This document shows, piece by piece, positions 9,571 through 63,114 of a stretch of 64,000 nt of DNA. The translations under genes and the position numbers were made by a program. Source of the DNA: Deltaproteobacteria bacterium (GTDB lineage Bacteria > Myxococcota_A > Polyangia > HGW-17). The notes under the pieces are model-generated. The model ran no database searches. It was given only the letters and a program-made list of their open reading frames with translations, and had not been told where the DNA came from. The first letter of the stretch is position 1; the number at the start of each line of letters is the position of its first letter. The stretch is from NCBI GenBank assembly GCA_016937155.1, contig JAFGWM010000031.1:1-64000 (forward strand), written 5' to 3'.

Positions 9571-9701
9571 AATTTTCTCCAGGATATTTTTATTAATTTT
9601 CATATAAAGATAAAAGCAAACTGCTAAAAAAAGCAATCGGTTTTTTTAACAGAGCTAATTTTTACCTTGTTAAAATTATTATATAGCAGGGGACACTTCC
9701 A

Positions 9702-9724
9702 TATAGTGCTAGCGACACACTATA
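9702..9724. repeat. Short inverted repeat beside GGGGACACTTCC, upstream of cas3
   Basis: TATAGTG (9702-9708) and CACTATA (9718-9724) form a perfect 7-bp stem around a 9-base loop. It is preceded on the plus strand by the string ggggacacttcc (9689-9700). It lies where the Rpn-like remnant loses its coding match and in the region that should contain the cas operon promoter. It may be the scar of a small mobile or REP-type element, or an operator. Sequence alone does not decide. Confidence 0.4.
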
Positions 9725-10102
9725 AAATAACTTTTTTTCATTTTTTTTTTGAATTCAAAATTCCAGTAACCTTTTTCTGGTTGTTCAAATAACACGTGAG
9801 AGGTGTAATACATGCATCTTTCCAAAAAATTCTTTCTGTTTTATATTCTGAAGTTCTATGATTATTCTCTTCCCGTCTCCAGTGACACAGTACAGATCAA
9901 AAATTGCAATTCTGTCTTGGGGCGTATGAACAAGTTTTTCCTTATCAATATATTCAAGATCCGTTATAGATTCCTCGAAGCCATCAAGTACAGCATTAAG
10001 GAAATCAATAAGGATTTCGCTGAATAGAGGTCCAAATAATTTCTTGAAACCAAAATCTGTAAAAAAGTCTATATATTTTCCCTCAGTTATTAAATCAGTC
10101 AT
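9709..10102 (-). pseudogene. Broken Rpn/PD-(D/E)XK nuclease-family transposase gene
   Basis: The first 105 codons (10102 down to 9785) encode the start of an Rpn-family protein: FFTDFGFKKLFG near residue 13 is the family's N-terminal signature. RIAIFDLYCVTGDGKRIIIE supplies the Asp and Glu of the PD-(D/E)XK nuclease core, followed by LQN. Full members are usually near 280-300 residues. After EFFGKMHV the frame ends early, but the next frame continues the family pattern (MYYTSHVLFEQPEKGYW) to a stop at 9709. This indicates a frameshift near the T-run at about 9827-9832, followed by loss of the C-terminal half. Rpn proteins promote recombination in Escherichia coli and are common in mobile regions. 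I infer a dead remnant at the edge of the CRISPR-Cas locus. Confidence 0.8.
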
Positions 10103-28474: not shown

Positions 28475-29095
28475 ATGAACTTTATTCTTCTTTTCAGAGT
28501 ACTCACTGCATTGGGAATACTTCTTTTTTTGAGGCAGCATGTTGCAGTTATTTTACAGTTTTTATTTCCAACTCTGGTGAAGCATACCAACAGGGATGTC
28601 GAACTCAGAGAGGAATATAAGGAGTATGTGAAAAAGGGCTATAAATTTCTTGGTATACGGAAAGAGGGAATACGACTGATTTTTTCCCGAAAATATGCTG
28701 TTTTTTCAAAAGAAGGAACATTCATGGATATTCCGGTCAACTACGGAAAAAGTTTTTATTTTATAACATTTATCAAGGACAATATTTTTCTGTTTACCCG
28801 CAGTTCCGGTTCAGGAAGTATGGACAAAGGATTTTATCATTCCAGAAAGTTTTCCGGAGATTTCAGTGAAATAGAGAATCATCACAATAAAGAACTGGAA
28901 AAACTGTCCCTTGGCGAAAATCCCAGTGAAAAAACCGGTATGAAGGAAAGACTTGAAGTTGCCAGGATATGGTACAAGTCATTTGCCAGAATGGAATTGT
29001 GGAAATTTGCAATTCTAAGTTTTATTATAACGCTGACTGGAATTTTATTCATACTGAGGATACTGTTTTTTATAAAAGGTTTTGGAGTGGGCTAA
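28475..29095 (+). CDS. Hypothetical membrane protein with terminal transmembrane segments
   Basis: A 206-residue protein of no family I recognise. It has a hydrophobic N-terminal segment (about residues 3-30, FRVLTALGILLFLRQH and onward). A mostly polar, lysine- and phenylalanine-rich middle of about 140 residues follows, then a C-terminal membrane helix (about 178-200, FAILSFIITLTGILFILRIL). The middle domain should lie on one side of the membrane. The gene ends 3 bp before the PqqD-like gene, so the two are surely cotranscribed and may work together. The 220-bp gap upstream (28255-28474) separates it from cheX and must hold divergent promoters. I could assign only the cheX one. Confidence 0.75.
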   Translation: MNFILLFRVLTALGILLFLRQHVAVILQFLFPTLVKHTNRDVELREEYKEYVKKGYKFLGIRKEGIRLIFSRKYAVFSKEGTFMDIPVNYGKSFYFITFIKDNIFLFTRSSGSGSMDKGFYHSRKFSGDFSEIENHHNKELEKLSLGENPSEKTGMKERLEVARIWYKSFARMELWKFAILSFIITLTGILFILRILFFIKGFGVG

Positions 29096-38152: not shown

Positions 38153-39526
38153 TTACTCCGTTATTTCCAATTCTTCTTCTGAAAGTTTTCGGTAGATTGT
38201 TCTTGTGGTAATACCAAGAAGTCTTGCAGCAGCATGTTTGTTTCCATCAGTAAACTTGAGTGTTTCACGGATAAGTCTGAGCTCAACGTCCTCAAGTGGT
38301 ACACCAATGGGAACTTCAAAAGAGGAACGAAATGGCTGTTCCCTTGTTATCTCAATGGGAAGATCCTGTGGAGTAATCATTTCTCCCTGGGATAAAACAA
38401 CTGCCCGTTCAATTATATTTTCCAATTCTCTGACATTACCGGGCCATTCCCATGATAAAAGCATATCAAGGGCACTGGGATCAATTCCTTTTACTATTTT
38501 TGAATTTTTGATATTGAATTTATTAATAAAATGAGCACAAAGCAATGGAATGTCATCCATTCTGTCCCGAAGGGGTGGAAGTGTGACGCTGATTACATTC
38601 AGTCTGTAATAGAGATCTTCACGGAAGTTTCCCTCTACAACCATGGTTTTCAGATCCCTGTGGGTTGCACATACAAGTCTGAAATCGATCTTATAGCTCC
38701 TGTCACTTCCGAGGGGTTCCACTGTACCTTCCTGAAGTACTCTTAAAAGTTTCACCTGAAGTTGAGGTTTCAGTTCTCCTATTTCATCAAGAAACAGTGT
38801 TCCGTTTTGAGCCTGACGAATTTTTCCAAGCCGATCTTCAGTTGCTCCCGTGAACGCACCCTTTGAATATCCGAACAGTTCGGATTCAATAATTGATTCA
38901 GGAAGTGCTCCGCAATTGAGTACAACGAATTTTCCATTTTTTTGAGTGCTCATCTGGTGTACAGCGTTTGCGGCGAGTTCTTTTCCTGTGCCACTTTCAC
39001 CTAAAAGTAATACAGTTGCTCTGCTTTTTGCCACATTTTCAAGAAGGGACAGCGTTTTCCTGAAGGATTCGGCATTACCCACCATTTTACTGGTGGCGGT
39101 TTCCTCCCTCAGGAGATTTCTCAGCCTGATATTTTCCTTTACAAGAGAGTGTTTTTCAATTGCCTTGGATATTGTTTTAAGAAGTTGAGCTTTTTTAATC
39201 GGCTTGGATATGAAGTCATATGCTCCAAGTTTCATCGCATTGACTGCAGTTTCGATATTTCCGTAAGCGGTCATTATTATGACTTCAGGACTGTTGGGTA
39301 ATTTTCGGATGATTCTGGTGAGTTCTATTCCGTCAATTTCCGGAAGTCTAAGATCCGTAAGAACCAGATCAAGATCTTCTGATGTTACAATTTCAACTGC
39401 TTTTTCAGCATCTGCAGCAGTAAGAACTGAAAAACCCTCTCTGGTTAGTATTTTCTCCAGAGAACCAAGAATTCCAGGTTCATCATCCACCACCAGTATT
39501 TTTGAAGGTTCTAAAGAGTCCAGCAT
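38153..39526 (-). CDS. NtrC-type sigma-54-dependent response regulator
   Basis: A 457-residue activator. The receiver domain (1-120) has VVDDEPG, the phospho-acceptor Asp in LVLTDLRLPEIDG and the switch Lys in FISKPIKK. The AAA+ domain (about 140-375) has Walker A GESGTGKELAA, the sigma-54 contact loop GAFTGA, and Walker B in TLFLDEIGE, followed by the LYYRLNVISVTLPPLRDR region. The C-terminal Fis-type helix-turn-helix includes NKHAAARLLGITTRTIYRKL. All parts needed to drive sigma-54 promoters are intact. I start at the ATG at 39526 rather than a TTG 18 bases upstream. Its partner kinase is not adjacent, so it is an orphan in this window. It heads an operon with the UbiB-like and RluA-type genes. 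Confidence 0.95.
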   Translation of the reverse strand: MLDSLEPSKILVVDDEPGILGSLEKILTREGFSVLTAADAEKAVEIVTSEDLDLVLTDLRLPEIDGIELTRIIRKLPNSPEVIIMTAYGNIETAVNAMKLGAYDFISKPIKKAQLLKTISKAIEKHSLVKENIRLRNLLREETATSKMVGNAESFRKTLSLLENVAKSRATVLLLGESGTGKELAANAVHQMSTQKNGKFVVLNCGALPESIIESELFGYSKGAFTGATEDRLGKIRQAQNGTLFLDEIGELKPQLQVKLLRVLQEGTVEPLGSDRSYKIDFRLVCATHRDLKTMVVEGNFREDLYYRLNVISVTLPPLRDRMDDIPLLCAHFINKFNIKNSKIVKGIDPSALDMLLSWEWPGNVRELENIIERAVVLSQGEMITPQDLPIEITREQPFRSSFEVPIGVPLEDVELRLIRETLKFTDGNKHAAARLLGITTRTIYRKLSEEELEITE

Positions 39527-39584
39527 ATTACTCTGATACAACAATTTACATATAATTGTAAGATTTTTCAGGATTCAGCAGTAA

Positions 39585-39636: not shown

Positions 39637-41217
39637 TTATTTAGCTTGAGGTGCGGGGGGAACACAAAGTCCCAGAGCACTTTCGCTTTCTTCGGTATCT
39701 GTGTAGACTGTACCATTTACGGTATAGCTATAACTGTGCTGCTCATGATTTTGGGTGAAAATTCTGGAAGCTGAAACACATTCATATGCAACCGGAGTGG
39801 CATCATCAGTCATAAGGCCACCACAATCTGGTTCTGCTGCACTGGCATCACAAACTTTAACACAAGCCCAGTCAAGTGTACCGGGGTCGCTGTCGTTTAT
39901 GAGTGCATCGTACATATCAAGAGCCATGAAGTTTCTGATGTAGCAGAAACTTCCAGCAGAACATGTTTCTTCATCAGATTCACTGTCACATACTGCATCG
40001 ATAGCATCTGCTTCAGTGGAGGGGGCACATACACCCAGAAGATTTCCAAAACCGTTGAGTTGGCAGGTTTCGCCTTCAGCACATGGGGATGTTCCGTTTT
40101 TAATCTGAAGACCGGTGATGAGGTCACACATAACGATTGGTTCATCAATGATAGCATTGGCTTCAGCAACCATTGGTACGCAGAGTCCCTGATCAGCTTC
40201 TCTGAAAAGAACGTTGGAGTTTTCACTACCATCAATGGTAGGCTCGAGATCAATACTTCCGAGACTCAGGCAGTTCCAATCAGTTGGACAGGTGTCTTCA
40301 CCAGCGAGTGAATCATTGGGATCACAATAATCAAAGCAGTTACCATTTTCGGAAGTCTGATTTCCAGCATCGTCTCTTGGAGTAAGGCAGCGGCCTTGGC
40401 ACTGGCTGTCAGCAGTAATAGTTGTGTCACCATCGATCATAACATCATCATCACTCACACAAGCTGCATTGTTAGCAAGTGTTCCAACTTCCTGACAAAG
40501 ACCGGTATCATCAATCTGTCTCCAGAGAGGTACACAATAACCGGTTCTTCCGTCACCGAGGTCACATGCTGCATTTACATCAGAAGGTGTTCCTATGAAT
40601 CCCGCCATGTCGCCATGACCACAGAACTGATAGAAACATTCCCCTGGCATATAACTGTTATCGATGCACTGGAGGCCCCAGCCGCAGTCTCCGCCTTCGT
40701 CACATGTCTGGAGACACATTTCGTAAAGAGAGTCACATGTTCCAGCGAAACCGTTGGCTCCACAACATTCGGTGGTTCCACCGGCGGTATTGCAGTCTTC
40801 CCACATCTCATTGATGCAGAGTTCAGTACATTCTGTTGTTACCAGCTGGCAGTCAGTTGTACAACCGAGGGTACCACCGCCGAAGCCTTCGTCTTCACAG
40901 GTGTTGCCACCAAAGTCGTCCTGATCACATTCTTCGCCGGCTTCCATGATGCCGTTGCCGCATTCGGGTTCTGTACATGCAGATGTATCAATTGTGCATT
41001 CTGCTGTGCAGGAAACAGTTCCGTCTGTTCCGGAAACGAGAATAGCGCAGGTTGCTGTTTCAGGAATTATGTCGCCGTCACAGTCTTCACCTGGATCCAG
41101 TGTGCCGTTTCCACAGGTTCCGTTGTTGTTGTTACTGCTTGAATCATCATCACATGCGGCACTTATAAGTGCAACACCTGACATAGCTGCAAAAAAGAAT
41201 AAGGTTTTGACTTTCAT
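39637..41217 (-). CDS. Cysteine-rich surface lipoprotein
   Basis: A 526-residue lipoprotein: signal FFFAAMSGVALISAAC with lipobox Cys at about residue 21, then a poly-Asp/Ser/Asn linker. Two CGNG...EECD modules (residues about 34-130) are of the same family as in the other lipoproteins here. The rest is a long cysteine-rich region of different spacing, with about 40 cysteines in all, no catalytic motif, and an ending rich in Pro. The strong own promoter (TTGCAC-17-TATAGG at 41271-41299), AAGGAG ribosome site and stable terminator suggest a single-gene, well-expressed unit. Abundant structural or binding protein of the outer surface is the simplest guess. Confidence 0.88.
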   Translation of the reverse strand: MKVKTLFFFAAMSGVALISAACDDDSSSNNNNGTCGNGTLDPGEDCDGDIIPETATCAILVSGTDGTVSCTAECTIDTSACTEPECGNGIMEAGEECDQDDFGGNTCEDEGFGGGTLGCTTDCQLVTTECTELCINEMWEDCNTAGGTTECCGANGFAGTCDSLYEMCLQTCDEGGDCGWGLQCIDNSYMPGECFYQFCGHGDMAGFIGTPSDVNAACDLGDGRTGYCVPLWRQIDDTGLCQEVGTLANNAACVSDDDVMIDGDTTITADSQCQGRCLTPRDDAGNQTSENGNCFDYCDPNDSLAGEDTCPTDWNCLSLGSIDLEPTIDGSENSNVLFREADQGLCVPMVAEANAIIDEPIVMCDLITGLQIKNGTSPCAEGETCQLNGFGNLLGVCAPSTEADAIDAVCDSESDEETCSAGSFCYIRNFMALDMYDALINDSDPGTLDWACVKVCDASAAEPDCGGLMTDDATPVAYECVSASRIFTQNHEQHSYSYTVNGTVYTDTEESESALGLCVPPAPQAK

Positions 41218-46270: not shown

Positions 46271-48634
46271 ATGAAACGATTGCTACTATTTTTAACTGTA
46301 ATTTCGTTATCTGTTTTCACAATTGGTTGTGATGACGATGATGATACAAACAACACTAATAACACAAACCAGGAAATTTGTGATAATCAGACAGATGACG
46401 ATGGCGATGATCTTATTGACTGCGATGATGATGACTGCGTTGATGCTGAAAATTGCCAGGTTGTTGAAATCTGTGACAATGGTGAGGATGACGATGGCGA
46501 TGATCTCATTGACTGCGATGATGATGACTGTGCCAACACTGTAGAATGTCCCATGATTAAGCACATAACTGTTATCGGTACTTCTGATATTCACTCACAT
46601 CTCATGGGTGTTGGAAGTGCTTATGACTATTCACCTCTCACCACAAATGATGATGATACAAAATCCGGTCTCGCAAGAATCGGAGCCGTTATCAAAAACA
46701 TCAGAGCCACCAAGGATGCTTCTGAAGTTCCTTATGTAACCGTCGACAGTGGTGACTTCCTTATGGGTGATATGGTGGATTTCCTCGGTTCTGAGGCTCC
46801 TCCGGTTCTTCATTTCTTCCAGTTGATGCAGTATGATGCGGTTACACTTGGTAATCACGACTTTGACTGGACTCCCGACGGTGCAGCCCTTATTATAAAT
46901 GCTGGAATCGCAAATGAGGATATCAATTTCAATATTCCCCTTCTCAGTTCGAATATCGTGACTGATGCCACTTCCGACTCTGATAACAGCATTGAAGCAC
47001 TCATCGCTGGTAACGTTATCCGCAGATATGTTATCAAAGCCATTGATGACGATTTCAGTGTAGGTATCTATGGTGTCATGGGCGTTGAAGCTGATTCCAA
47101 TGTTCCTCAGGCAAAACCCCTCACCTGGTGGCATGAATTCTACAAAGATGAAGGTGGTGCAATTGTTTGGGATACAGAGCAGTATCAGGCACTTATCGAT
47201 GAAATGAAGGATGAGGGCGCTCACATGGTTGTTCAGGCAGGACATGCCGGTTCAAACAGTGACACCACCGGTGAAGACCGTGATGTTGCTTCTCACATTG
47301 ATGGTGTTGATGTAATCATGTCAGGTCATCGTCATCAGGTTATCACAAGTGATGATGGAACCTTCAAGGTTGGTGACACAGTTATTATGGCCACAGGTCG
47401 TAATGGTGAATGGGTTTCCCAGCTTGACGTTGCATTCAATGTGACAACAGAGACCGTTGAAGATTCTACCGGTATTTTACATGCTATCGATGATACAGTG
47501 GAAGGTGATCCTGTTCTTGCTGCTATTATGGGCGCTTATATAACAGGCCTTGATACAGTACTTGAACCAATGGGATTCACCTACAGTGCATCTCCTATCG
47601 CCACGACTACTTTTGATGTTGCCACAAGTGAAAATATTTTCTATGCACCTGCAGGAACAACAATCACTCCTTATGATATTGAAAAACCCGCAGGTATGCT
47701 GATAGCTGATGCTCAGAGATCAGTAATGAACACAATTATTGGTATGGCACTTGATGCAGGCCTTGGGGCTGATCCAACATTCGATTCATCTCCAATTGAG
47801 ATAGTTTTCATCGAAACCGGTGCTGTTCGTGATCCAATTTTGAAGGGTCTAACAGGAAATATTGCAGCAGCAGATGCTTTCCGTGCATTCCCTCTGGGTA
47901 TCGGACCTGATCAACTTCCTGGCTATCCAATGCTTACTTTCTATCTGACACCAAAAGAAATCGGTATTATTCTCAACATGGATGTTGAAGCATTCAAGGG
48001 TAATGTTCCCTTTGAATATTATATGGTTCCCTCAGGACTCAGATATGTTTATGATGATGATGGTACTCAGTTCGACAGAGTTCTGAAAGCAAACATCTGT
48101 CCGGTACAGGATCCCTTCACTCTTCAGGACTGTTTTGTGCCCGGAAGTATTCCCGGTGGAACAGGTACTCCTCTTGATTTAACTGATGAAACAACTTTAA
48201 TCCGTGTAAGTGTTGACTATTATGTTGCTCTTTCTCTGCCGGAAGCTCGAAATGCCTTTGGTGAAAACCTTACCATTGATCCAAAATTCAAAAATGGTGA
48301 TACAGTTGATATGACTGACAGTGCACAAGTAGCTTCACTTCGCTTCAATGCAACTCCAGGCAGTGATCTCACTGAGCTTAAAGCATGGTTTGGTCTCCTC
48401 AAATATCTCGAAGGTTTAGAGGATGAATGGAGCACTTATGGTATCGATTATGACGAAGGCGAAGCCGATGGAATGCCAAGTATTCCCCGTCGTGTTTATG
48501 ATGATACTCCGGCTCCTGATGATGTAACTGATGGAATGTGGAATCTTGGTGTATTCAGAAATATGGAAGTAACCATGTTCTGTAGTGTGGCAACATTTGC
48601 TGCTACCAACCCGGATATCTGCCCAACCAAATAA
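46271..48634 (+). CDS. 5'-nucleotidase/2',3'-cyclic phosphodiesterase lipoprotein with Asp-rich N-terminus
   Basis: A 787-residue lipoprotein: signal LLLFLTVISLSVFTIGC with lipobox Cys, then a stretch of more than 50% Asp/Asn. Two MopE-like units (DDDGDDLIDCDDDDC, near residues 41-55 and 72-86) suggest calcium binding. The catalytic calcineurin-like domain begins near 97: VIGTSDIHSHLMG, VDSGDFLMGDMV, VTLGNHDFDWTPD and VIMSGHRHQV supply the two-metal site. The C-terminal 5'-nucleotidase domain (about 470-760) contains DAFRAFPLGI and the aromatic substrate region. The expected role is release of phosphate and nucleosides from extracellular nucleotides at the cell surface. The promoter is TTGCAC-16-TATAGT and the ribosome site AGGAGG. 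No terminator stem was seen after it. Confidence 0.93.
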   Translation: MKRLLLFLTVISLSVFTIGCDDDDDTNNTNNTNQEICDNQTDDDGDDLIDCDDDDCVDAENCQVVEICDNGEDDDGDDLIDCDDDDCANTVECPMIKHITVIGTSDIHSHLMGVGSAYDYSPLTTNDDDTKSGLARIGAVIKNIRATKDASEVPYVTVDSGDFLMGDMVDFLGSEAPPVLHFFQLMQYDAVTLGNHDFDWTPDGAALIINAGIANEDINFNIPLLSSNIVTDATSDSDNSIEALIAGNVIRRYVIKAIDDDFSVGIYGVMGVEADSNVPQAKPLTWWHEFYKDEGGAIVWDTEQYQALIDEMKDEGAHMVVQAGHAGSNSDTTGEDRDVASHIDGVDVIMSGHRHQVITSDDGTFKVGDTVIMATGRNGEWVSQLDVAFNVTTETVEDSTGILHAIDDTVEGDPVLAAIMGAYITGLDTVLEPMGFTYSASPIATTTFDVATSENIFYAPAGTTITPYDIEKPAGMLIADAQRSVMNTIIGMALDAGLGADPTFDSSPIEIVFIETGAVRDPILKGLTGNIAAADAFRAFPLGIGPDQLPGYPMLTFYLTPKEIGIILNMDVEAFKGNVPFEYYMVPSGLRYVYDDDGTQFDRVLKANICPVQDPFTLQDCFVPGSIPGGTGTPLDLTDETTLIRVSVDYYVALSLPEARNAFGENLTIDPKFKNGDTVDMTDSAQVASLRFNATPGSDLTELKAWFGLLKYLEGLEDEWSTYGIDYDEGEADGMPSIPRRVYDDTPAPDDVTDGMWNLGVFRNMEVTMFCSVATFAATNPDICPTK
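46394..46530 (+). repeat. Direct repeat encoding the two MopE-like Asp units
   Basis: Two 44-bp copies (46394-46437 and 46487-46530) starting gatgacgatggcgatgat are identical except for one base and lie 93 bp apart, a multiple of three. They encode the two calcium-loop-like units in the 5'-nucleotidase lipoprotein. Confidence 0.85.
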
Positions 48635-48772: not shown

Positions 48773-49795
48773 ATGAAGGGTATCAGACCTTACAGAATTG
48801 ATGGTAACAGAAAAATTCAGTTACTGGATCAGAGATATCTCCCCCACGAGGAGAAATGGCTTACAATTGAGACCTGGGAAGACATGGCGGATGCAATAAA
48901 GGATATGATAATTCGTGGGGCACCTGCAATAGGTATTGCTGCTGCTTTCGGGTATTATCTGGGCAATCTGCAGATGAAAACCAGGAAGAATAACGACGGC
49001 GGGGTTTTTATGGAAAATGTAAGGAATATTCTGGCTTCAACCAGACCAACTGCAGTCAACCTTTTCTGGGCTCTTGAAAGAATGAGTCTTATTGATCTGC
49101 ATGATACCGATGCTCTGTGGCAGGAAGCAGTTGCTATATCTGAAGAAGATGAAAAAAGCTGCAGGGATATGGGAAAACATGGTTCCGCAGAAATTAAAGG
49201 TAAGAACCTCAGAGTTCTCACCCACTGCAACGCTGGTGCACTGGCAACAGGAGGTTGGGGAACAGCTCTTGGTGTTATCAGGCAGCTTCATACCGAGGGC
49301 AGGCTGCAAATGGTATACAGTGATGAAACCAGACCCCGTCAGCAGGGTTCAAGGCTTACCGTATGGGAACTGGCTCAGGATGGTGTTCCTGTAACAATGA
49401 TTTCTGATACAATGGCGGGTCACATGATGAAAAACAATTTGATAGATCTTGTTATAACAGGTGCTGACAGGATTGCTTCAAATGGCGACAGTGCAAATAA
49501 AATTGGAACTTATCAGATTGCAGTTCTTGCAAAGCGCAACGATATTCCATTTTATATTGCAGCACCTGTTTCGACTGTGGATTTTAGCATAAAAAGTGGA
49601 GAAGAGATCATAATTGAGGAGAGAGATGAATCTGAGGTTCTTTATATTGACGGGAAAATTCAGACAGCGGAAAATGTTCATGCCAGAAATTTTGGTTTTG
49701 ATGTGACTGAGGCAGAGTTAATATCAGGTATAATCACCGAAAAAGGTGTACTGAAGTTCCCCTATGGTGAAAGTATCAGTCGACTGGCAGTTTAA
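48773..49795 (+). CDS. mtnA: Methylthioribose-1-phosphate isomerase
   Basis: A 340-residue enzyme of the methionine salvage pathway, converting methylthioribose-1-phosphate to methylthioribulose-1-phosphate. Motifs: IIRGAPAIGIAAAFGYYLG near residue 45, THCNAGALATGGWGTALG with the active Cys near 150, TDLVI-type LVITGADRIASNGDSANKIG with the active Asp near 233. I place the start at ATG 48773, since AAGGAG lies eight bases upstream; the frame open from 48743 is unlikely. No other mtn gene is in the window. Its last 20 bp overlap the convergent lytic transglycosylase gene. I looked for a SAM riboswitch upstream and saw none. Confidence 0.95.
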   Translation: MKGIRPYRIDGNRKIQLLDQRYLPHEEKWLTIETWEDMADAIKDMIIRGAPAIGIAAAFGYYLGNLQMKTRKNNDGGVFMENVRNILASTRPTAVNLFWALERMSLIDLHDTDALWQEAVAISEEDEKSCRDMGKHGSAEIKGKNLRVLTHCNAGALATGGWGTALGVIRQLHTEGRLQMVYSDETRPRQQGSRLTVWELAQDGVPVTMISDTMAGHMMKNNLIDLVITGADRIASNGDSANKIGTYQIAVLAKRNDIPFYIAAPVSTVDFSIKSGEEIIIEERDESEVLYIDGKIQTAENVHARNFGFDVTEAELISGIITEKGVLKFPYGESISRLAV

Positions 49796-52142
49796 GAAGC
49801 TTTTTGTCTCCATACAGAAGTTTATATGCAAAAGCACTTGCAGTCACTCTTCTTATGTATTTTCTTGTTTCCTCATAATCCATCATTTCGATCTGCATAT
49901 CAGTGGAATAATTTTTGTTTTTTCCTAAAAATCTTTTAATTTTTCCTTCACCGGCATTGTATGCTGCAATTATAAAGGGAGTGTTTCCCTTAAAAAGTTT
50001 ACTAAGTCTTGCCAGATACCATGCTGTCATATTTAGTGAAACATCCGGTTTTTCCAGCATTTTAGCACTTGAGTAACTGATGCCTGTTTTTCTGGCAATA
50101 TATTTTGCAGTGGCAGGCATAATCTGTGTCAGACCTCTGGCATTTGCACTGCTTATGGCTCCGGGATTGAACGCACTTTCCTCCCTTACAAGTCCTGAGA
50201 GAATATACCATGGGATTTTATGCTTAATGCTCCACTGCAGGATCTTTTTACTATAAAGCTCAGGGAAAGACATTTTCCATATCAGTTGATTTTTTCCTGC
50301 TCCCCACATCAGTGTATGATCCTCCAGTACTTTGCCTGAAATAAGAAATGACTCATAAAACATACTGTTTTTTAAAAGAATAAATGAAACAGCTCTAAGA
50401 AAGGATTTATCAGTACCATGGTTTTTAGAAAAAATACTGAATTTCTGCTGCAGAACTCTTAGAGCAATTTCCACAAGGCCGTATCTTGACAGTTCAAGGA
50501 AAACAGGGAATTCCTTCTCATTAAAATGCTTTGATTTTAGAATACTCCAGGGCACAGTGGTGGGAGTTTTATCTGAGATCAGTTTTTCAAGAAGTCTGTT
50601 GCCTGAATCAGGTATCTTAAAATTCATTCTGTTTAGAGCATACAGACTGTAAAATGATCCCGGTGAGAGGATAGCAGTTTTCTGATAATAAAGCTGGGCT
50701 TTTTTTAAATCCCCCTTGAGTTCATTAAATTTTCCCAGCCAGTAGAGAATTTTTCCAGTCTGCTCTGTGTTTACAACTGACGAGGTGCTGTTTCTGATTT
50801 TTTCCAAAAGAGCAATTGCACTGTCAAAGGACTTATTTCTTCCCATTGAAAGAGCACGGTTAAAAAGAGCGTTAAAAGTTTTATCTCCTGAGGGATAGTT
50901 TTTTTCAACCAGATTAAGCAGTTTTTTTGCCCTGGATTTGAAATTCATGGACTTCAGGATTGATATTTCTATATATAGAGCATCATCGGCATATCTGTGA
51001 CCGGGGAATTGTTGGTGGATACGTCTCAGAAATTTAAGTGCAGTTGATTTCTTTCCTGTTGCCAGAGAACTTTTTCCCGCAAGATAAAGGGATTTGATTA
51101 TCAGATCTCTGGGAGCTGTTTTATGATTGCAAAAATATACGGCCTTTTTAAGGGAATTTAGAGATTCAGTACGGTTTTTCCGGTAATAATGGGCTCTTCC
51201 AATATAATAATAATATGCACATTTTTCACTCTGAGAACATCTGATTCCATTAATTTTTATATCCCTGATGATTTTATCAAAGGACATGTTTTTATTCATT
51301 TTTTCGAGGTACTTAATCCGTGTTTTACATGAAGAATTTCTGAGTGGATTTTTTCCTGTAAGTTGAAAAATATTTTTTGAAGCTGATTTTTCTAATTTAT
51401 TATTTTGTGACCACACAAGATAAAGATATGAAAGTGCCTTTTTTTTATCGCCTTTTTTCTTAAGCACTTCAGCCAGTTCCATTGCCAGATGGTAATCATC
51501 CCCGGTGAATTTTTTTATTCCGGACAGATATTTTTCAGAATATTTTATGAATTTTGCAGGATCTTTTTCTTTTAATATCTTCATTTTCATGAAGACGGCC
51601 TGTTTTTTGAAGATAGTTTTCTCCAGTATATCCAGAAGAGTCATTGTTTCTTTTTGGCCTTTTTTGAAGGAAGCTTTGCAGCCCAGATACAGGAGATATT
51701 CTTTCAGGAGGGGATACTTCTTTCGAATACTATAATTTTTTAAAATCAGTTCATCATAACTACCAGAAAGAAAATTTCCTAAAATTCGTAAAAAGTCATG
51801 ATGAAACGATGTTGAATCTTTTTTAAGAACACTCTCAACTTTTTGTGGCTGATTTTCTCTAATATATCGGGAGGCCTTTTGGAGATTAGCATCTGAGTCG
51901 GTATACACGGTATAATTTTGAGGATAAAAACCTGTTGCAGTAAGGACTGGAGAACCTGAAATTTGAATGGATTTTTTCTGCCGGGGTGTTTTAAATGATC
52001 TCCCGGATAAAACCGATGAATGAAAAACTTCAAAGGATTCTTCAGATGATTTTAAGATTCCACCAGTTTTTACCGAATATATTACTGGTAGAATAGGAAT
52101 TGTTATGAGTGTTATAAATATGAAAATTCTAAATTTTTTCAT
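49776..52142 (-). CDS. Lytic transglycosylase (SLT domain) with long helical N-terminus
   Basis: A 788-residue exported protein with a hydrophobic signal (FIFITLITIPILPVIYS). Residues about 90-620 are helical with TPR-like repeats, as in the superhelical part of soluble lytic transglycosylases. The catalytic SLT domain occupies about 640-770: LVREESAFNPGAISSANARG with the active Glu, then LTQIMPATAKYIARKTG and FIIAAYNAGEGKIKRFL. Such enzymes cut the glycan strands of peptidoglycan and leave anhydro-muramic ends. Lysine content is very high. Its 3' end overlaps mtnA by 20 bp. The start has only a distant GGAG, so a downstream start is possible. Confidence 0.92.
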   Translation of the reverse strand: MKKFRIFIFITLITIPILPVIYSVKTGGILKSSEESFEVFHSSVLSGRSFKTPRQKKSIQISGSPVLTATGFYPQNYTVYTDSDANLQKASRYIRENQPQKVESVLKKDSTSFHHDFLRILGNFLSGSYDELILKNYSIRKKYPLLKEYLLYLGCKASFKKGQKETMTLLDILEKTIFKKQAVFMKMKILKEKDPAKFIKYSEKYLSGIKKFTGDDYHLAMELAEVLKKKGDKKKALSYLYLVWSQNNKLEKSASKNIFQLTGKNPLRNSSCKTRIKYLEKMNKNMSFDKIIRDIKINGIRCSQSEKCAYYYYIGRAHYYRKNRTESLNSLKKAVYFCNHKTAPRDLIIKSLYLAGKSSLATGKKSTALKFLRRIHQQFPGHRYADDALYIEISILKSMNFKSRAKKLLNLVEKNYPSGDKTFNALFNRALSMGRNKSFDSAIALLEKIRNSTSSVVNTEQTGKILYWLGKFNELKGDLKKAQLYYQKTAILSPGSFYSLYALNRMNFKIPDSGNRLLEKLISDKTPTTVPWSILKSKHFNEKEFPVFLELSRYGLVEIALRVLQQKFSIFSKNHGTDKSFLRAVSFILLKNSMFYESFLISGKVLEDHTLMWGAGKNQLIWKMSFPELYSKKILQWSIKHKIPWYILSGLVREESAFNPGAISSANARGLTQIMPATAKYIARKTGISYSSAKMLEKPDVSLNMTAWYLARLSKLFKGNTPFIIAAYNAGEGKIKRFLGKNKNYSTDMQIEMMDYEETRKYIRRVTASAFAYKLLYGDKKLLKLPVD

Positions 52143-52246
52143 GAATCAAGCTGTGTCTCCAGAAGAAAAAGTCTACTATGGACGTTGATAAATGCAATTT
52201 TTCTCAGGTATTTATCAATAAAGGGAGTACATAATTAAAGATATAT

Positions 52247-52273
52247 CTGAGTTTCCTTGACAAGGGAACTCAG
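52247..52273. repeat. Long inverted repeat upstream of the degenerate kinase gene
   Basis: CTGAGTTTCCTT (52247-52258) and AAGGGAACTCAG (52262-52273) pair over 12 positions, with one G-T pair, around a 3-base loop. It ends 20 bases before the ATG at 52294 and includes a TTGACA (52257-52262) that with TAAACT (52279-52284) could form a promoter. It may be an operator or a folded RNA leader. It has no T-tail. Confidence 0.7.
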
Positions 52274-52293
52274 GGAATTAAACTGAGGCTGTT

Positions 52294-52932
52294 ATGTCTG
52301 ACACTAATTTTTCATATCCCCAACTGATTGACGTTCTTCCGGGAGTTATCCATGAGATAAACAATCCACTGGGTGCTCTTATAATGAATATTGCAATTTT
52401 AAGGGAGGATACGGAGCTTTCCGCTCTCAATCCCGAAGAAAAGGAATCCCTCATTGAAACCTATGATGACATGGATAATGCCCTTCAGAAAATAAAGGAT
52501 TTTGTTCAGAGTCTCGGTTATCTCAGTGTTCAGAGATTCTATGACGAGCCTACAGGTATTGATCTCAAATACGTGATAAATCACAGTATAAATCTTTTCC
52601 ACAACAAGCTTAAAAGGGTTGTCCGTACTGAGGTTCGTCAGAATTCAAACTCTTATCTTTTTGTAAATATCCGCATAACCAGAGTGATTATAGCGTTTTT
52701 AGAAGTGTTGTCACAACTTGTGGAGTGCGATGGGGAAAAGATAATTTTATTTGACTGCGATTATCTGAAGGAAGATCAAAAGGTATTTTGTGAAATTTCC
52801 AGAAAAAATTGCTCTCTTAGCATGGATTTGGAGAAACTGACCGAACTTTCTTCCATGGGAGATTTTTCTTTTGAAGTCCATCCCGGAAAGGTAATTTTTA
52901 AATTTGCTCCTCATGAGCAGATTTCCATTTGA
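52294..52932 (+). CDS. Histidine-kinase-like protein with H-box but degenerate ATP domain
   Basis: A 212-residue soluble protein. The N-terminus has a HisKA helix with a perfect phospho-acceptor motif (LPGVIHEINNPLGALIMNI; His near residue 20), like NtrB/AtoS-type kinases, followed by the second dimerisation helix (ALQKIKDFVQSLGYLS). The remaining 130 residues align in outline with a kinase ATP-binding domain, but the N box, DxGxG and GxG loops are missing; at the N-box position it reads FLEVLSQL. So it probably cannot phosphorylate itself and may be a phosphotransfer or docking protein. GAGG lies five bases before the ATG. The serine protease gene starts 13 bp after its stop. A 27-bp inverted repeat lies just upstream. 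Confidence 0.82.
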   Translation: MSDTNFSYPQLIDVLPGVIHEINNPLGALIMNIAILREDTELSALNPEEKESLIETYDDMDNALQKIKDFVQSLGYLSVQRFYDEPTGIDLKYVINHSINLFHNKLKRVVRTEVRQNSNSYLFVNIRITRVIIAFLEVLSQLVECDGEKIILFDCDYLKEDQKVFCEISRKNCSLSMDLEKLTELSSMGDFSFEVHPGKVIFKFAPHEQISI

Positions 52933-52945
52933 TTTGAGGAATATG

Positions 52946-54820
52946 ATGCGTAATTCACTAAAGTTACTTATGGCATTTTTATCAGTAATGGTGATGGTTT
53001 CCTGTATTGAGGAGGAATTTTCTCATGAGGAAATCGGGACTTACATCAATGGTGGCTATGATGAGCCCGGACAGCCAGGGGTTGTGTATATTATGCACAA
53101 CTGGGGATACGGATGTACAGGAACACTGATTGCTCCAACAGTTGTACTGACAGCAAAACACTGTGTGAGAGATCTGGACAATGGAATTGATCTTCCTACT
53201 TACGGTTTCAGTGTAAATGTTGGAAGTGATGCATGGTCAATTACAAATACCTACGGTGTATCAAGCATAGTTAAATATCCCGGTGATGAAATTGAAAATG
53301 AGGATGTGGCTCTGATGGTTCTATCCTCATCTGTTCCTGATACAGTTGCTCAGCCTTATAAACTCAGGGTAACCTACGGAGGAGAATTTCCCCTCACTGC
53401 CAATGAATCCCTAGTTTCAATAATAGGTTACGGTGAAAGTGTGTGTGGCGCCAGTGGAAACAGTGGTGTTAAACTCAGGACAGAAGATTTGTACATGGGT
53501 ACAATGACTGCAGGTGATTTCTGGACACAGGGAAGAGGAGCTAACCACGGTGACAGTGGTGGACCAATTTTCGATTCAGAGATGCGTGTACTCGGTGTGA
53601 CTTCACGCGGAAGTGATGAGTGTACCGGAGAGCTTGCGGGTATAACCATTGGTGCAAGTGTTATTTATCATCTGGATTTTATTAATGAAGTCCTGGAGGA
53701 TGAAGGTTACTGTGCAGCTACTCACGAATCTGAAGTGTGTGGGGATGGAAAGGATAATGACTGTAATGGTCTGGTGGATGATTCATGCCTTGATGATGGA
53801 ACTATATGCGAATTTGATTACCAGTGTCTCAATGGAATCTGTTTTGAACAGAGTGGGGAAAAACGATGTCTGGAAAGTTGTGATCCTCTGAGTGGAACCA
53901 ACACATGTGGAAGTGGTAAATACTGCAGGATAACTGAGTGCAATAGAGCAATATGCAGCCCGGGAACAGCCGGAAGCAAGGGCTTTTATGAACTCTGCAA
54001 TGTTGATACCGATTGTGAAAGTTTGTTCTGCAGGAGTGCTTCTGATGGCCTAAACAGATGTCTTTACCCATGTGAACCGGGATATGATCAATGTATGACC
54101 GGCGAAGTCTGTGACACTGTTTTATATGGCTGTGGCGGATGTATTCCTTCAGAAGAATCAGATCGCGATGTTAATTACACCGGTGAACCCTGTGATAAAG
54201 CAACGGACTGTTCCAGTGGTATCTGTATAGAAGTTGGTGATATATCATACTGTTCAGACAGCTGTTCAAATGATCTGGACTGTATTTCCACTTATCACTG
54301 CGACGGAGCTCGTTGTATTAAAGGTGAACGTGGTGTTTTAGGGGATCCATGTCTTGTGGATGGTGACTGTGAAAATGGTATGGAGTGTATTGATGCCGGT
54401 ACTGGAATCGCCCATTGCACAACTGACTGCAGTACTGAAGCATGTCCGGATGCCAATTACACATGTTACGATGTTTCAGGTGGCAGATATTGCCTGAATT
54501 ATCTTGGCGGAGATGCAGGAGATGTTTGCTCTGTAGCCAGTCCGTGTCAACCTGATTTTACATGTAGAGAAATTACCACCGGAGAATTCAGATGTGTTAA
54601 CTACTGTAGCAGACAGACGGCATGGGAATGTCCTTCATATACTTTCTGTGAAGAAATGGGAAGTTATAACTACTGTGTTCCGATGGAGAGAGTAGTAAGT
54701 GAAGGCGGGGGAAGCAGCAGCGGTTGTATGCAGATACCATCAGGAAGGAATTCATCATCTGCTGTTTCTGTTTTCATGCTGCTTTTCAGTATGATACTGA
54801 TACGCCGTTTCAGGAGTTGA
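52946..54820 (+). CDS. Trypsin-like serine protease lipoprotein with cysteine-rich tail and sorting-like C-terminus
   Basis: A 624-residue surface protease. The start at 52946 has GAGG six bases upstream and yields the signal LKLLMAFLSVMVMVSC ending in a lipobox Cys. The chymotrypsin-type domain (about 30-260) has all of the triad: His in VLTAKHCVRD, Asp in ENEDVALMVL, Ser in NHGDSGGPIFD. A MopE-like CGDGKDNDCNGLVDDSC follows. About 300 residues of cysteine-rich repeats then contain CDKATDCSSGIC-like units. The C-terminus is GGGSSSGC, a hydrophobic helix (VSVFMLLFSMILI) and RRFRS, which resembles a MYXO-CTERM signal. Having both an N-terminal lipid site and such a tail is unusual. The target is unknown. 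It is cotranscribed with the preceding kinase-like gene. Confidence 0.9.
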   Translation: MRNSLKLLMAFLSVMVMVSCIEEEFSHEEIGTYINGGYDEPGQPGVVYIMHNWGYGCTGTLIAPTVVLTAKHCVRDLDNGIDLPTYGFSVNVGSDAWSITNTYGVSSIVKYPGDEIENEDVALMVLSSSVPDTVAQPYKLRVTYGGEFPLTANESLVSIIGYGESVCGASGNSGVKLRTEDLYMGTMTAGDFWTQGRGANHGDSGGPIFDSEMRVLGVTSRGSDECTGELAGITIGASVIYHLDFINEVLEDEGYCAATHESEVCGDGKDNDCNGLVDDSCLDDGTICEFDYQCLNGICFEQSGEKRCLESCDPLSGTNTCGSGKYCRITECNRAICSPGTAGSKGFYELCNVDTDCESLFCRSASDGLNRCLYPCEPGYDQCMTGEVCDTVLYGCGGCIPSEESDRDVNYTGEPCDKATDCSSGICIEVGDISYCSDSCSNDLDCISTYHCDGARCIKGERGVLGDPCLVDGDCENGMECIDAGTGIAHCTTDCSTEACPDANYTCYDVSGGRYCLNYLGGDAGDVCSVASPCQPDFTCREITTGEFRCVNYCSRQTAWECPSYTFCEEMGSYNYCVPMERVVSEGGGSSSGCMQIPSGRNSSSAVSVFMLLFSMILIRRFRS

Positions 54821-54921
54821 CAAAACTGAAGTATCAGCTTGACTGATCTGCAGGTTTATATATGATCAGTGGTTTATATGCTTATCTTGTTGGTGTAGCT
54901 TCAGAAAGGAAGTATCGGATA

Positions 54922-55296
54922 ATGACAATTGCTAAGGAAGATCTGGAAGAAATCCGCGCCGGGCTTATTGACAGGCGAAATAAACTTCTCGAAATGGCCA
55001 AAAATCAGTTAAAAAGTGATATCAGTCTTGATCGCAATGAGATGGCTGATGAGAATGACCTTGCTTCCAGTGAGTACCTTCTGTCATTTGAACTGAGAAT
55101 CCGTGACCGCGAGAAATATCTCTTAAGAAAAATAGAGGATGCCCTTGAAAGAATGGATACTGATGAATACGGGGTTTGTGAATCATGCGGCGAAGATATT
55201 TCAGTACCGAGACTTAAGGCTCGGCCTGTAACCACCATGTGTATCAGGTGTAAGGAAGAACAGGAAAGAAAAGAAAAGGAATATCTTGATAACTGA
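54922..55296 (+). CDS. dksA: DksA/TraR-type RNA polymerase-binding protein
   Basis: A 124-residue DksA, which enters the RNA polymerase secondary channel and acts with ppGpp in the stringent response. The coiled-coil tip has the acidic DxxDxA motif (DENDLAS) needed for activity. The C4 zinc finger is CESC...CIRC with 17 residues between. The stretch VPRLKARPVTTMC matches other DksA proteins. I choose the ATG at 54922, with GGA six bases upstream, because it gives the usual N-terminus; the longer frame adds a hydrophobic piece with no family match. Length is slightly short compared with the Escherichia coli protein (151 residues) but all functional parts are there. Confidence 0.93.
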   Translation: MTIAKEDLEEIRAGLIDRRNKLLEMAKNQLKSDISLDRNEMADENDLASSEYLLSFELRIRDREKYLLRKIEDALERMDTDEYGVCESCGEDISVPRLKARPVTTMCIRCKEEQERKEKEYLDN

Positions 55297-55311
55297 TTCC
55301 TGAAGGTTTTC

Positions 55312-56679
55312 CTATCTTGCTATTTCAAATTTATATTTTCCGGGTTTAAGCAGAGGGATTTTGACGATTACGGTTGTTTCCTTATCTGAAATTGATGGGG
55401 ATATTGTTTTTGTCAGGATAATTTTTTGTCTGGAATTTTTAAGAACAAGAGTCAGATGAGGGGGAGGACTCCCTTTATGCTTAAGTTTAACAGTGGTTTC
55501 TGAACCTGATTTGATATGTGAGTCACTTTGAATTTCATATTCGTAAGCTGCTGAAGCATCTGGTTTTCTCACAGTGTTAACCGGAATTATTGCTCCTCCC
55601 AGATCAATCCGGACCCATTTTCGGTTATCATCAATAATTTCCACAAAAGCATGAATTTCATTGAAAACAAGCCTTGTTTTTATTCCGTAAGATGTGGCAA
55701 TGGCCATGAAAAGTAATGATCTGTGTCTGCAGACGCCTCTTTTCTGTTTTATAATATCTTCAAATACACCCAGAGTATTTCCTATTGATTTTAGTGGTTT
55801 AACTGTAAATGCATGAAAATATCTGTAAAGAAAATCCACCAACTGTTTTCTGCTGGTAAAATTTCCTAAATGTTTCTTTACTGAGGATCTTATGATCTGA
55901 TCATTTTTAAAAAAAGGTCCAGTTTTAAGACGTGTTTTTCTCAGATGGTAATTTCCAAAGTAGTACTTGTCCGCTGCAAGTTTAAGAATAATGGGTTTCT
56001 TTGAAAGTTTTTTTAAAGGACCAATATAATATATATCATTACCATCCTTCCAGAACCGTGTGGTTTTTTCAATGTATCCTTTTTCCAGTCCGGTAATAAT
56101 CATACCGGGAGAAACTGAAGGGAGTATATGATATCTGCTTTTGGTTTTTATAGTGTAGGTTCCCCAGAAAAATTTATACAATGAAGGATTTGTTACTGTT
56201 TTAAGTGAAACGGATCTGAGGTTGTTCTGAGTATTATAAGTTCTGAGGCGGTATTTCCCTCCGGGGATTTTTTCAAGAACGACACTGTCATGGACATAAA
56301 TTCTTTCCCAAGGGTAAATATCCGGAGAAAAGATACTTCCCACCGGGTGTCTTGGTGGTGTCCATTTATCTGTTTTATTATCAAGCATCATATCTGAAGT
56401 CTGTTTTTCCAGATTTTTATCTACCTTTGATAATTTACGTGAGAGCATTTTTATTGTGCTGTTAAGTATTCCAAGTTCTGAGGTGCTGGTGTTTGTTCCG
56501 TTTTTTCCGGATGAAGATGTATTACTGTTGTCGAGAGGGGTAAAATTCTGATCTTTTCTTGCTTCGGAAGAATCCTGAGATGTGTTGTTGACTTTATTAA
56601 ATTTTTTTTCATCAAAAGGAATGTGAAGAACAGGATTCTGGGAAAGAATAATTATCCCAAACGATATAATATACGCCAT
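55312..56679 (-). CDS. Transglutaminase-like exported protein
   Basis: A 455-residue protein with an N-terminal hydrophobic segment (YIISFGIIILSQ), so exported or anchored. The transglutaminase-like core lies at about 300-380: the Cys in KRGVCRHRSLLFMAIA, the His in NEIHAFVEIID and the Asp in WVRIDLGGAI make a full Cys-His-Asp triad. The N-terminal 120 residues are Ser/Thr/Asn-rich and disordered-looking; a beta-rich region (120-270) and a C-terminal immunoglobulin-like strand region follow. Such domains act as proteases or as protein cross-linking enzymes; which is unclear. Its first 28 bp overlap the 3' end of trmB, and GAGAG lies before the ATG, so the two genes share a message. Confidence 0.85.
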   Translation of the reverse strand: MAYIISFGIIILSQNPVLHIPFDEKKFNKVNNTSQDSSEARKDQNFTPLDNSNTSSSGKNGTNTSTSELGILNSTIKMLSRKLSKVDKNLEKQTSDMMLDNKTDKWTPPRHPVGSIFSPDIYPWERIYVHDSVVLEKIPGGKYRLRTYNTQNNLRSVSLKTVTNPSLYKFFWGTYTIKTKSRYHILPSVSPGMIITGLEKGYIEKTTRFWKDGNDIYYIGPLKKLSKKPIILKLAADKYYFGNYHLRKTRLKTGPFFKNDQIIRSSVKKHLGNFTSRKQLVDFLYRYFHAFTVKPLKSIGNTLGVFEDIIKQKRGVCRHRSLLFMAIATSYGIKTRLVFNEIHAFVEIIDDNRKWVRIDLGGAIIPVNTVRKPDASAAYEYEIQSDSHIKSGSETTVKLKHKGSPPPHLTLVLKNSRQKIILTKTISPSISDKETTVIVKIPLLKPGKYKFEIAR

Positions 56680-61929: not shown

Positions 61930-63114
61930 ATGAATAATGACAATGGTCTTCCCCCATTGGATCCGAACGTGACCCCAGAAAACTCAGCCCCAGCACCGAT
62001 GGCACCTCCGCCTCCGGCTTATAATCCCTACGATGTGCCAGCAGTTGGTGGTGTTAAGTCCGGTTCCGGGCTTAAGGTAGGAATTGTAATTCTGCTCGGT
62101 TTACTGACTCTCCTTGTTCCTCTTGGGTTATTTAAAATCGGTAGTCCTCACCCGTGTGGTGATGACAGAGCCAAAAAGGGTGAATGTGTTATTGTTCAGA
62201 CTCCTTCTGGTTGTACACCGAGTGTATTCAGTATGGAATCTGAATTTCTGACATGCAAGATGGTTGGTGCTGTTGGAAACGAAGACTTTAAAGCAAAAAA
62301 TCCCAGTAAATGGGAATCATGCAATGCCTTAAATGAGAAAATCAAGGCTCAGAAGGGTTTCAAATGTTATGCACCTGCCGCAGTGTTAAAAGCTAAGGCA
62401 AAGGGTGGTAAACTTCCTGATCCGATGGATATGCCTCCTCTTGAAGTCCAGAAGATGAGTGCTCTCAACAGTGTTTCCTCTTCCACTATCACTTCGGATA
62501 TGGTTTTTACTGTTATCACAATACTCATTATTCTCGGTCTTATGGCTGGCGCAGCCTTTTTCAGTCACAAGAAAAACAGAGAAGGTTTTCTCCATGTCAG
62601 TGGCGTGTTCCTCGTGGGTATATTCGCTGCATTTATCTACAGATATTACGTGGCAGGATTCTACAGTGGAGACATTGTTGTTATGATGATAGCCCTTTTG
62701 GGTGTTGTTCCTATGATTATGATGGCTGTTTCCCGTGAGGGAAAACTTGGAACCGCCATGGGTATTGCTCAGGGTCAGGGTGGCGATTATGCCATTGACA
62801 CCTCCAAAAAGGATGTTGTTCCCCCTAGTGAAGCTCTTTCAGCAGCTGAAGCCACCAAGTTTGAACGTATGGCAATGAAACATACTGCTGCCTGGGAAAT
62901 TGCATTTATTCTCGGGTTTATCACTCTGGTTCTCTCACTGCTGCCAATCGGACTGGTAAGTATGGGTAAAACTTCAAATGCTGATAGTGCAATGAAGAAG
63001 GAAGCAGCGAAGCTCACCAGTCTTGTTAAGAAAAAAGAAAGTGCCACAACAGATGTTAATGTTGATGTAGGAGAAGGTGGTTCCGGTGAAGACGGTGAAG
63101 GTGACGAAGATTAA
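61930..63114 (+). CDS. Hypothetical membrane protein with cysteine-containing loop
   Basis: A 394-residue protein of no family I know. The first 45 residues are Pro/Ala-rich and cytoplasmic in style (PAPMAPPPPAYNPYDVP). One membrane helix follows (about 52-70). Next is a region of about 125 residues with several cysteines (HPCGDDRAKKGECV, CTPS, LTCKM, ESCN, KCYAP), likely outside and disulfide-bonded. Three more helices lie near 193-213, 222-240 and 245-262, and a final one near 318-338. The C-terminus is an acidic glycine tail (GEGGSGEDGEGDED). It has a clear promoter and strong ribosome site and precedes rpmB by 101 bp, which has a promoter of its own. It may belong to lineage-specific surface machinery. 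Confidence 0.8.
   Translation: MNNDNGLPPLDPNVTPENSAPAPMAPPPPAYNPYDVPAVGGVKSGSGLKVGIVILLGLLTLLVPLGLFKIGSPHPCGDDRAKKGECVIVQTPSGCTPSVFSMESEFLTCKMVGAVGNEDFKAKNPSKWESCNALNEKIKAQKGFKCYAPAAVLKAKAKGGKLPDPMDMPPLEVQKMSALNSVSSSTITSDMVFTVITILIILGLMAGAAFFSHKKNREGFLHVSGVFLVGIFAAFIYRYYVAGFYSGDIVVMMIALLGVVPMIMMAVSREGKLGTAMGIAQGQGGDYAIDTSKKDVVPPSEALSAAEATKFERMAMKHTAAWEIAFILGFITLVLSLLPIGLVSMGKTSNADSAMKKEAAKLTSLVKKKESATTDVNVDVGEGGSGEDGEGDED

What the first reader, a model, noticed from the sequence alone, without database searches (positions are those of the whole stretch)
52247..54820. Kinase-like protein without ATP site coupled to a surface protease, behind a 27-bp hairpin
The 212-residue protein keeps a perfect histidine-kinase H-box but lacks all ATP-binding boxes, so it may take phosphate from another kinase or bind one. 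It shares a message with a trypsin-like lipoprotein, with only 13 bp between them. A 12-pair inverted repeat sits 20 bases before its start. Histidine relay plus exported protease in one unit is unusual and could be a regulated surface-proteolysis system.
Basis: partly seen in the sequence, partly recalled or inferred. Interest (0 to 1): 0.5.

Follow-up and report, generated by a model that had tools for sequence, protein, structure and literature searches.

The report
Kinase-derived phosphotransfer protein beside protease gene
A small bacterial protein has kept the phosphate-carrying half of a signalling kinase but seems to have lost the ability to use ATP, so it probably passes on or removes phosphate in a signalling chain; it sits next to a surface-protease gene, but related bacteria show the two genes do not need each other.

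Summary
Window 52294-52932 encodes a 212-residue protein with an intact H-box (HEINNPLG) and no recognisable ATP boxes. A trypsin-like lipoprotein gene follows after 10 bases. The protein is more than an H-box: the model (pLDDT 86.9) shows a histidine-phosphotransfer (DHp) hairpin plus a kinase-type CA fold whose N-box asparagines are replaced and which is too short for lid and G2 box. That is the plan of ChpT and Spo0B, so my best reading is a cytoplasmic pseudo-histidine-kinase that relays or removes phosphate. I found five orthologues, all in one order (Myxococcota by the titles of relatives); the H-box is invariant in 5 of 5. In four the gene lies directly before the protease; in the fifth it does not. 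Two relatives keep the neighbourhood (lytic transglycosylase, protease, DksA-like) without the pseudo-kinase. So the genes are linked but separable, and a dedicated 'regulated surface proteolysis' unit is not shown. The inverted repeat is real but occurs once in the genome and does not fold in the nearest relative; what is conserved there looks like a promoter. New lineage of a known kind; moderate interest.

The parts
52294..52932 (+). Pseudo-histidine kinase, 212 aa: DHp hairpin (residues 8-78, H-box His20) plus degenerate CA-type domain (about 85-208)
   Evidence: ORF; HisKA; model; fold matches; orthologues
52339..52371 (+). H-box (PGVIHEINNPL, residues 16-26); His20 phospho-acceptor candidate, Glu21 and Asn24 also kept
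   Evidence: HEINN invariant in 5 of 5 orthologues; same motif in full kinases
52943..54820 (+). Trypsin-like serine protease with lipobox-like N-terminus, Cys-rich middle part, and C-terminal GC-hydrophobic-Arg tail (the last three by eye)
   Evidence: Trypsin 62.7 bits; His and Asp motifs kept in 10 of 10 aligned relatives, Ser motif too but nine rows were picked by it; start
52257..52284 (+). Promoter-like TTGACA-16-TAAACT; the same boxes and spacing, also 9 bases before the ATG, in the congener
   Evidence: promoter-like sites in the region as a whole are at chance number (10 found, 8.8 expected)
52247..52273 (.). 27-bp imperfect palindrome overlapping the promoter-like first hexamer; unique in the held genome; not a hairpin in the congener
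49776..52142 (-). Divergent TPR plus SLT lytic transglycosylase gene, conserved neighbour
54862..55296 (+). DksA-like zinc-finger protein gene, conserved neighbour downstream of the protease (start could lie further in)

Best explanation
The 212-residue protein is a cytoplasmic pseudo-histidine-kinase that works like the dimeric phosphotransferases ChpT and Spo0B. Two copies pair through their DHp hairpins into a four-helix bundle. His20 accepts phosphate from a receiver domain (of a hybrid kinase or single-domain regulator) and hands it to another receiver, or Glu21/Asn24 let it strip phosphate from one. It cannot phosphorylate itself, because the CA-type domain has lost ATP-contacting residues and the ATP lid. 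The CA-type domain probably remains as a docking surface for the partner. It is probably made from the same transcript as the surface trypsin-like protease in this family, which links their amounts but not their mechanisms. Shown here: sequence, predicted fold, replaced N-box columns, invariant H-box, gene order. Inferred: dimer, inability to use ATP, phosphotransfer or phosphatase activity, partner identity, co-transcription.
For: Five orthologues; HEINN invariant in 5 of 5. First N-box Asn column is A, A, A, V, S in the orthologues against N in 24 of 26 aligned kinase rows; second is V, V, A, G, V against N in 15 of 21. Model pLDDT 86.9, pTM 0.82, from an alignment of 5. Residues 85-208 match the HK853 CA domain (2c2a: Z 15.8, rmsd 2.1, 121 residues; 124 model residues span what takes 158 there) and the whole chain matches 4gcz_A (Z 16.0, rmsd 3.6, 199 residues). 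Profile-profile match to 59 full kinases: probability 99.6%, 178 columns spanning DHp and CA. ChpT is described the same way: no autophosphorylation, atypical Bergerat fold, no ATP or ADP seen in crystals, lid replaced (PMC3433190, passages). The genome has 94 receiver-domain matches, so partners are plentiful. HExxN resembles the HExxT kept by RetS, which has phosphatase activity despite a degenerate ATPase domain (PMC5992135, passages).
Against: No biochemistry. I saw no receiver gene beside an orthologue in the ORF lists, but most neighbours were not scanned for domains. None of 5 members matched a Pfam phosphotransferase family. The G1 Asp column is thinly covered: Arg in 3 orthologues, 2 gapped, D in 4 of only 5 kinase rows. 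Six of 22 kinase rows put an N one column earlier (137), where G001 also has N, so the N-box alignment could shift by one in that orthologue. An inhibitory partner of another kinase (RetS or DivL style) would leave the same pattern. The model is a monomer built on 5 sequences.
Confidence: 0.6

Rival explanations
1. It is a modulator that acts by pairing with another histidine kinase (as RetS does with GacS, or DivL with CckA), blocking or steering it, without needing phosphate on its own histidine.
For: DHp helices and CA-type fold both kept; RetS chains are the two best Foldseek rows and a DivL chain is listed at Z 14.1 (4q20), though ordinary kinases score as well; RetS acts by several mechanisms (PMC5992135, passages).
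Against: The histidine and the whole HEINN box are invariant over orthologues as little as 24-26% identical to the window protein, more than a purely structural role needs.
Confidence: 0.22
2. A dedicated surface-proteolysis switch: the pseudo-kinase controls expression or export of the protease encoded with it.
For: Adjacent, same strand, gaps 10, 13, 43 and 58 bases in G000, G001, G004 and G002, in three genera.
Against: In G003 and G005 the transglycosylase-protease-DksA block is kept without the pseudo-kinase; in G009 the pseudo-kinase is followed by a coaBC-type gene and the protease is on another contig; a weak terminator-like site overlaps the end of the first gene (chance level); no hydrophobic N-terminal segment seen by eye in the pseudo-kinase (no predictor run).
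Confidence: 0.12
3. A decayed kinase fragment on its way out.
For: ATP boxes not recognisable; gene missing in the two genomes of genus g3.
Against: The same short form is shared by five genomes over two families, with an open frame and an invariant H-box.
Confidence: 0.06
4. The inverted repeat is an operator or an RNA hairpin that controls the message.
For: Rare for so short an intergenic region, 0.18% of 5000 simulations; it overlaps a promoter-like first hexamer; single-strand fold of the intergenic region z -3.27.
Against: Not folded at the same place in the congener; unique in the held genome; if the conserved boxes are the promoter, transcription would start at or next to the ATG and the repeat would not be in the message.
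Confidence: 0.25

Closest known systems
ChpT (Caulobacter crescentus histidine phosphotransferase; PMC3433190, passages read)
   Same: DHp hairpin with H-box plus Bergerat-type C-terminal domain that does not use ATP; a free-standing protein of similar size (size recalled).
   Different: No Pfam phosphotransferase family matched here; no CckA/CtrA-type partner shown; nearest sequence relatives found are ordinary full-length kinases of its own phylum.
Spo0B (Bacillus subtilis; named in PMC3433190 and PMC5898713, passages)
   Same: Dimeric four-helix phosphotransferase derived from a histidine kinase.
   Different: No sequence match by Pfam.
PhyT of Sphingomonas melonis (PMC5898713, passages; named PhyP in the older passages, which I take to be the same protein)
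   Same: Histidine kinase with degenerated ATPase domain that acts as phosphotransferase and is thought to dephosphorylate too.
   Different: Predicted membrane-anchored with a periplasmic sensor and an HRxxN motif; this protein is short, with HEINN and no sensor domain.
RetS of Pseudomonas aeruginosa (PMC5992135, passages)
   Same: HisKA with H-box and degenerate HATPase lacking G-boxes.
   Different: RetS also has receivers and a ligand-sensing part; this is only the core.

Membership tests
HisKA histidine kinase | H-box / DHp domain | tested here: met
   HisKA 26.0 bits, just under the 26.9 cut-off; listed for 5 of 5 members at E up to 1; HEINN invariant; helical hairpin in model
HisKA histidine kinase | ATP-binding N, G1 and G2 boxes | tested here: not met
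   Neither N-box Asn column is N in any of 5 (with the one-column caveat for G001); no HATPase_c listed; 124 residues where the HK853 CA domain takes 158. G1 thinly covered; G2 judged from length only
Dimeric pseudo-kinase phosphotransferase (ChpT/Spo0B kind) | DHp plus CA-type fold without ATP site, phospho-acceptor His kept | tested here: met
   (predicted monomer structure)
Dimeric pseudo-kinase phosphotransferase (ChpT/Spo0B kind) | Phosphotransfer between receiver domains | not testable with these tools
   Needs biochemistry
ChpT or Spo0B sequence family | Match to a sequence family model | tested here: not met
   HisKA is the only family matched by more than one of the 5 members; no phosphotransferase model among the 7 families listed at E up to 1
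Trypsin-like serine protease (second gene) | His/Asp/Ser triad and trypsin domain | tested here: met
   Trypsin 62.7 bits; His and Asp motifs in 10 of 10 aligned; Ser motif 10 of 10, but nine rows were picked by it
MYXO-CTERM surface protein (second gene) | C-terminal Cys-hydrophobic-Arg tail matched by a curated model | tested here: inconclusive
   Tail looks like it by eye (motif recalled), but no such model was listed in NCBIfam at E up to 1

The most novel reading that the evidence does not exclude
An independently evolved ChpT-like phosphotransferase lineage of one Myxococcota order that feeds a phosphorelay whose output includes the surface protease encoded with it, so that protease level and relay flux are set by one transcript.
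Probability: 0.12. Interest if true: 0.55.

Novelty: new variant of a known kind. Interest (0 to 1): 0.32.

Why it matters
ChpT and Spo0B show that kinases can be turned into phosphate shuttles. A further lineage in Myxococcota, whose nearest sequence relatives are ordinary full-length kinases of its own phylum, would be another natural case of how this happens, and would mark a hidden relay step in a genome with 94 receiver-domain matches. The linkage to a surface protease offers a testable but unproven output.

Tried and rejected
Hairpin as a repeated element: a pattern search of the own genome with up to 3 mismatches found only this copy. Hairpin conserved in orthologues: none as long and as complete upstream of the other four (the longest is a 14-nt, 79% complementary overlapping palindrome in G002), and the congener region does not fold. 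Leaderless promoters as a genome-wide habit: TTGACA-15/18-TANNNT-6/10-ATG is not more frequent than its backward control (15 against 24 in G000, 17 against 26 in G001), and promoter-like sites in 51900-55400 are at chance number (10 found, 8.8 expected), so the promoter reading rests only on the two orthologous sites. The element AGTTTCCTTGACAA at up to 2 mismatches is not enriched (72 against 117 control in G000, 86 against 84 in G001). Rfam: no match in the window at gathering scores. Terminator between the genes: one weak candidate at 52900-52924 overlaps the end of the first gene (10 pairs, 3 of them G-C), at chance level for the region (3 found, 2.1 expected); it counts slightly against co-transcription.

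Wider relatives: in 377 genomes of the phylum only G000, G001 and G002 gave high scores; each other match listed at E up to 1e-9 lay in a frame of 367 or more residues. That sample scored at most 8 candidates a genome and did not include the two known members G004 and G009, so absence elsewhere is not proven. The single-sequence scan of genome contigs found none; the profile scan, which used one H-box pattern, found 7 loci, 4 of them the known orthologues and 3 matching only 24-38 query residues. ChpT and Spo0B are not named in the 50 rows shown of either fold search; that shows nothing. By sequence, the solved structures gave one weak row for the single protein (E 0.83, a designed construct) and one for the profile (3a0r, sensor protein, E 0.00047).

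Literature: no paper held all of 'histidine kinase', 'trypsin-like', 'lipoprotein', 'operon', 'Myxococcota'; 'pseudo-histidine kinase' gave 5 papers (listing only); the listings showed no title on such a protein in Myxococcota. Passages of PMC8534201 and PMC4558063 were seen and gave nothing used here. Most listed papers were not opened.

Full report
WHAT IS THERE. The ORF at 52294-52932 (+) encodes 212 residues. Pfam lists only HisKA, at 26.0 bits and just under its cut-off of 26.9. The following gene starts at ATG 52943 (or 52946), 10 (or 13) bases after the stop, and encodes a trypsin-like protease (62.7 bits). Its His and Asp motifs are kept in all 10 aligned proteins; so is the Ser motif, but nine of the ten were picked by that motif. 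By eye it has a lipobox-like N-terminus and a C-terminal Cys-hydrophobic-Arg tail like MYXO-CTERM (motif recalled; no NCBIfam match). A divergent TPR/SLT transglycosylase lies upstream and a DksA-like gene downstream.

IT IS A KINASE CORE WITHOUT A RECOGNISABLE ATP SITE. With an alignment of five orthologues (A1), AlphaFold2 gave pLDDT 86.9 and pTM 0.82: two long helices (8-42, 47-78) followed by an alpha/beta domain. Foldseek found 202 solved chains at E up to 0.001, the rows shown being mostly histidine kinases. VIA-align gave the HK853 CA domain (2c2a) Z 15.8, rmsd 2.1 over 121 residues for model residues 85-208, and 4gcz_A Z 16.0, rmsd 3.6 over 199 residues for the whole chain. hhalign of A1 against 59 full kinases gave 99.6% probability over 178 columns. 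At the first N-box Asn column the orthologues have A, A, A, V, S while 24 of 26 aligned kinase rows have N; at the second, V, V, A, G, V while 15 of 21 have N (64 kinase rows in all, most gapped here, some kinases present twice because two searches fetched them). Caveat: 6 of 22 kinase rows put an N one column earlier, where orthologue G001 also has N. The G1 Asp column is thinly covered (Arg in 3 orthologues, 2 gapped; D in 4 of 5 kinase rows). The G2 box was judged from length only: 124 residues where the HK853 domain takes 158. His20, Glu21, Ile22, Asn23 and Asn24 are invariant.

HOW FAR IT REACHES. Of 39 relatives, 16 have a match at E up to 0.001, but only five have an orthologue over most of the length in a short frame or with its own start (G000, G001 50%, G004 35%, G009 29%, G002 25%). 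The profile search of the 13 genomes of the order gave the same five at 260 bits or more, the next match being 42.5 bits in a 547-residue frame. In 377 genomes of the phylum only G000, G001 and G002 scored high; that sample did not include G004 and G009 and scored at most 8 candidates per genome. Four orthologues were also found in genome contigs, under titles naming Myxococcota (two), Polyangiaceae and Deltaproteobacteria MAGs; the phylum name for the window is inferred from these.

LINKAGE. The pair is adjacent in G000, G001, G004 and G002, with gaps of 10, 13, 43 and 58 bases; these are three genera. The block without the pseudo-kinase is found in G003 and G005: transglycosylase, protease, DksA-like. 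These are incomplete genomes (77% and 73%), but the block itself is whole there and neither genome gave an orthologue elsewhere. In G004 the contig ends in the protease and the transglycosylase match shows only TPR repeats before the contig end. In G009 the orthologue is followed by a coaBC-type gene and the protease is on another contig. G008 and G011 have protease relatives and no orthologue. The protease tree leaves G002, G004, the G000/G001 pair and the G003/G005 pair unresolved among themselves, so I cannot date the loss; an orthologue in the outlying family of G009 makes loss in genus g3 likelier than gain (inference). So linkage is real in three genera, but the protease does not need the pseudo-kinase.

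THE INVERTED REPEAT. The window holds two repeats of this grade, about what chance gives in 64 kb (49 of 100 simulations had one or more), though it is rare for a 151-bp region (0.18% of 5000). It is unique in the held genome and not folded in G001. Aligned in register from the ATG, the last 47 bases of G000 and G001 agree at 29 positions, reached by 1 of 20,000 random window stretches (which may be the site itself), while the next 100 bases upstream agree at 17. The matches gather in AGTTTCCTTGACAA and TAAACTG. These make a promoter-like TTGACA-16-TAAACT, 9 bases before the ATG in both. If that is the promoter, the transcript starts at about the ATG and the palindrome is DNA only. Against this: such sites are at chance number in the region, the pattern is not enriched genome-wide, G001 could instead start at a GTG 9 bases upstream, and a GAGG that could serve as a ribosome site in G000 would lie outside the message (it is not kept in G001).

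FUNCTION. The plan (DHp with intact H-box, CA-type domain without ATP site, no sensor) is that published for ChpT: no autophosphorylation, atypical Bergerat fold, no ATP in crystals (PMC3433190, passages). PhyT and Spo0B are further cases (PMC5898713, passages; PMC9981736, passages), and RetS shows that such a core can also act as a phosphatase or inhibitor (PMC5992135, passages). The genome has 94 receiver-domain matches, among them a hybrid kinase in this window at 16512-21053, so donors and acceptors are available. I commit to phosphotransfer or dephosphorylation (0.6), with kinase-binding modulation as the main rival (0.22). I see no hydrophobic N-terminal segment in the protein (by eye; no predictor run), so it should not meet the exported protease directly.

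VERDICT. A real, conserved pseudo-kinase, mis-described only in that its CA-type domain survives. By kind it resembles ChpT and Spo0B; by sequence no Pfam phosphotransferase family matched. Its nearest sequence relatives found are full-length kinases of the same phylum, which suggests an independent origin (inference). The 'surface-proteolysis system' and the 'hairpin' are not supported as stated.

Noticed in passing
window 16512-21053 (+): Large hybrid histidine kinase (1513 aa: PAS domains, HisKA, HATPase_c, receiver), a possible phosphate donor for the pseudo-kinase.
   Followed up: partly
window 38153-39544 (-): NtrC-type response regulator (receiver, sigma-54 activator, Fis-type HTH).
   Followed up: no
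window 46271-48634 (+): 5'-nucleotidase/phosphoesterase-like protein with an acidic Cys-rich N-terminal region (weak repeat match under its cut-off); by eye a similar gene lies near the orthologous block in G002 (L033 10680-13040).
   Followed up: no
G008 C40 (locus L057 about 5985-9882): Two copies of the trypsin-like lipoprotein gene in tandem; no pseudo-kinase orthologue was found in that genome.
   Followed up: no
window 39637-41217 (-), 61930-63114 (+) and 28475-29095 (+): Three sizeable ORFs without any Pfam match at E up to 0.001.
   Followed up: no
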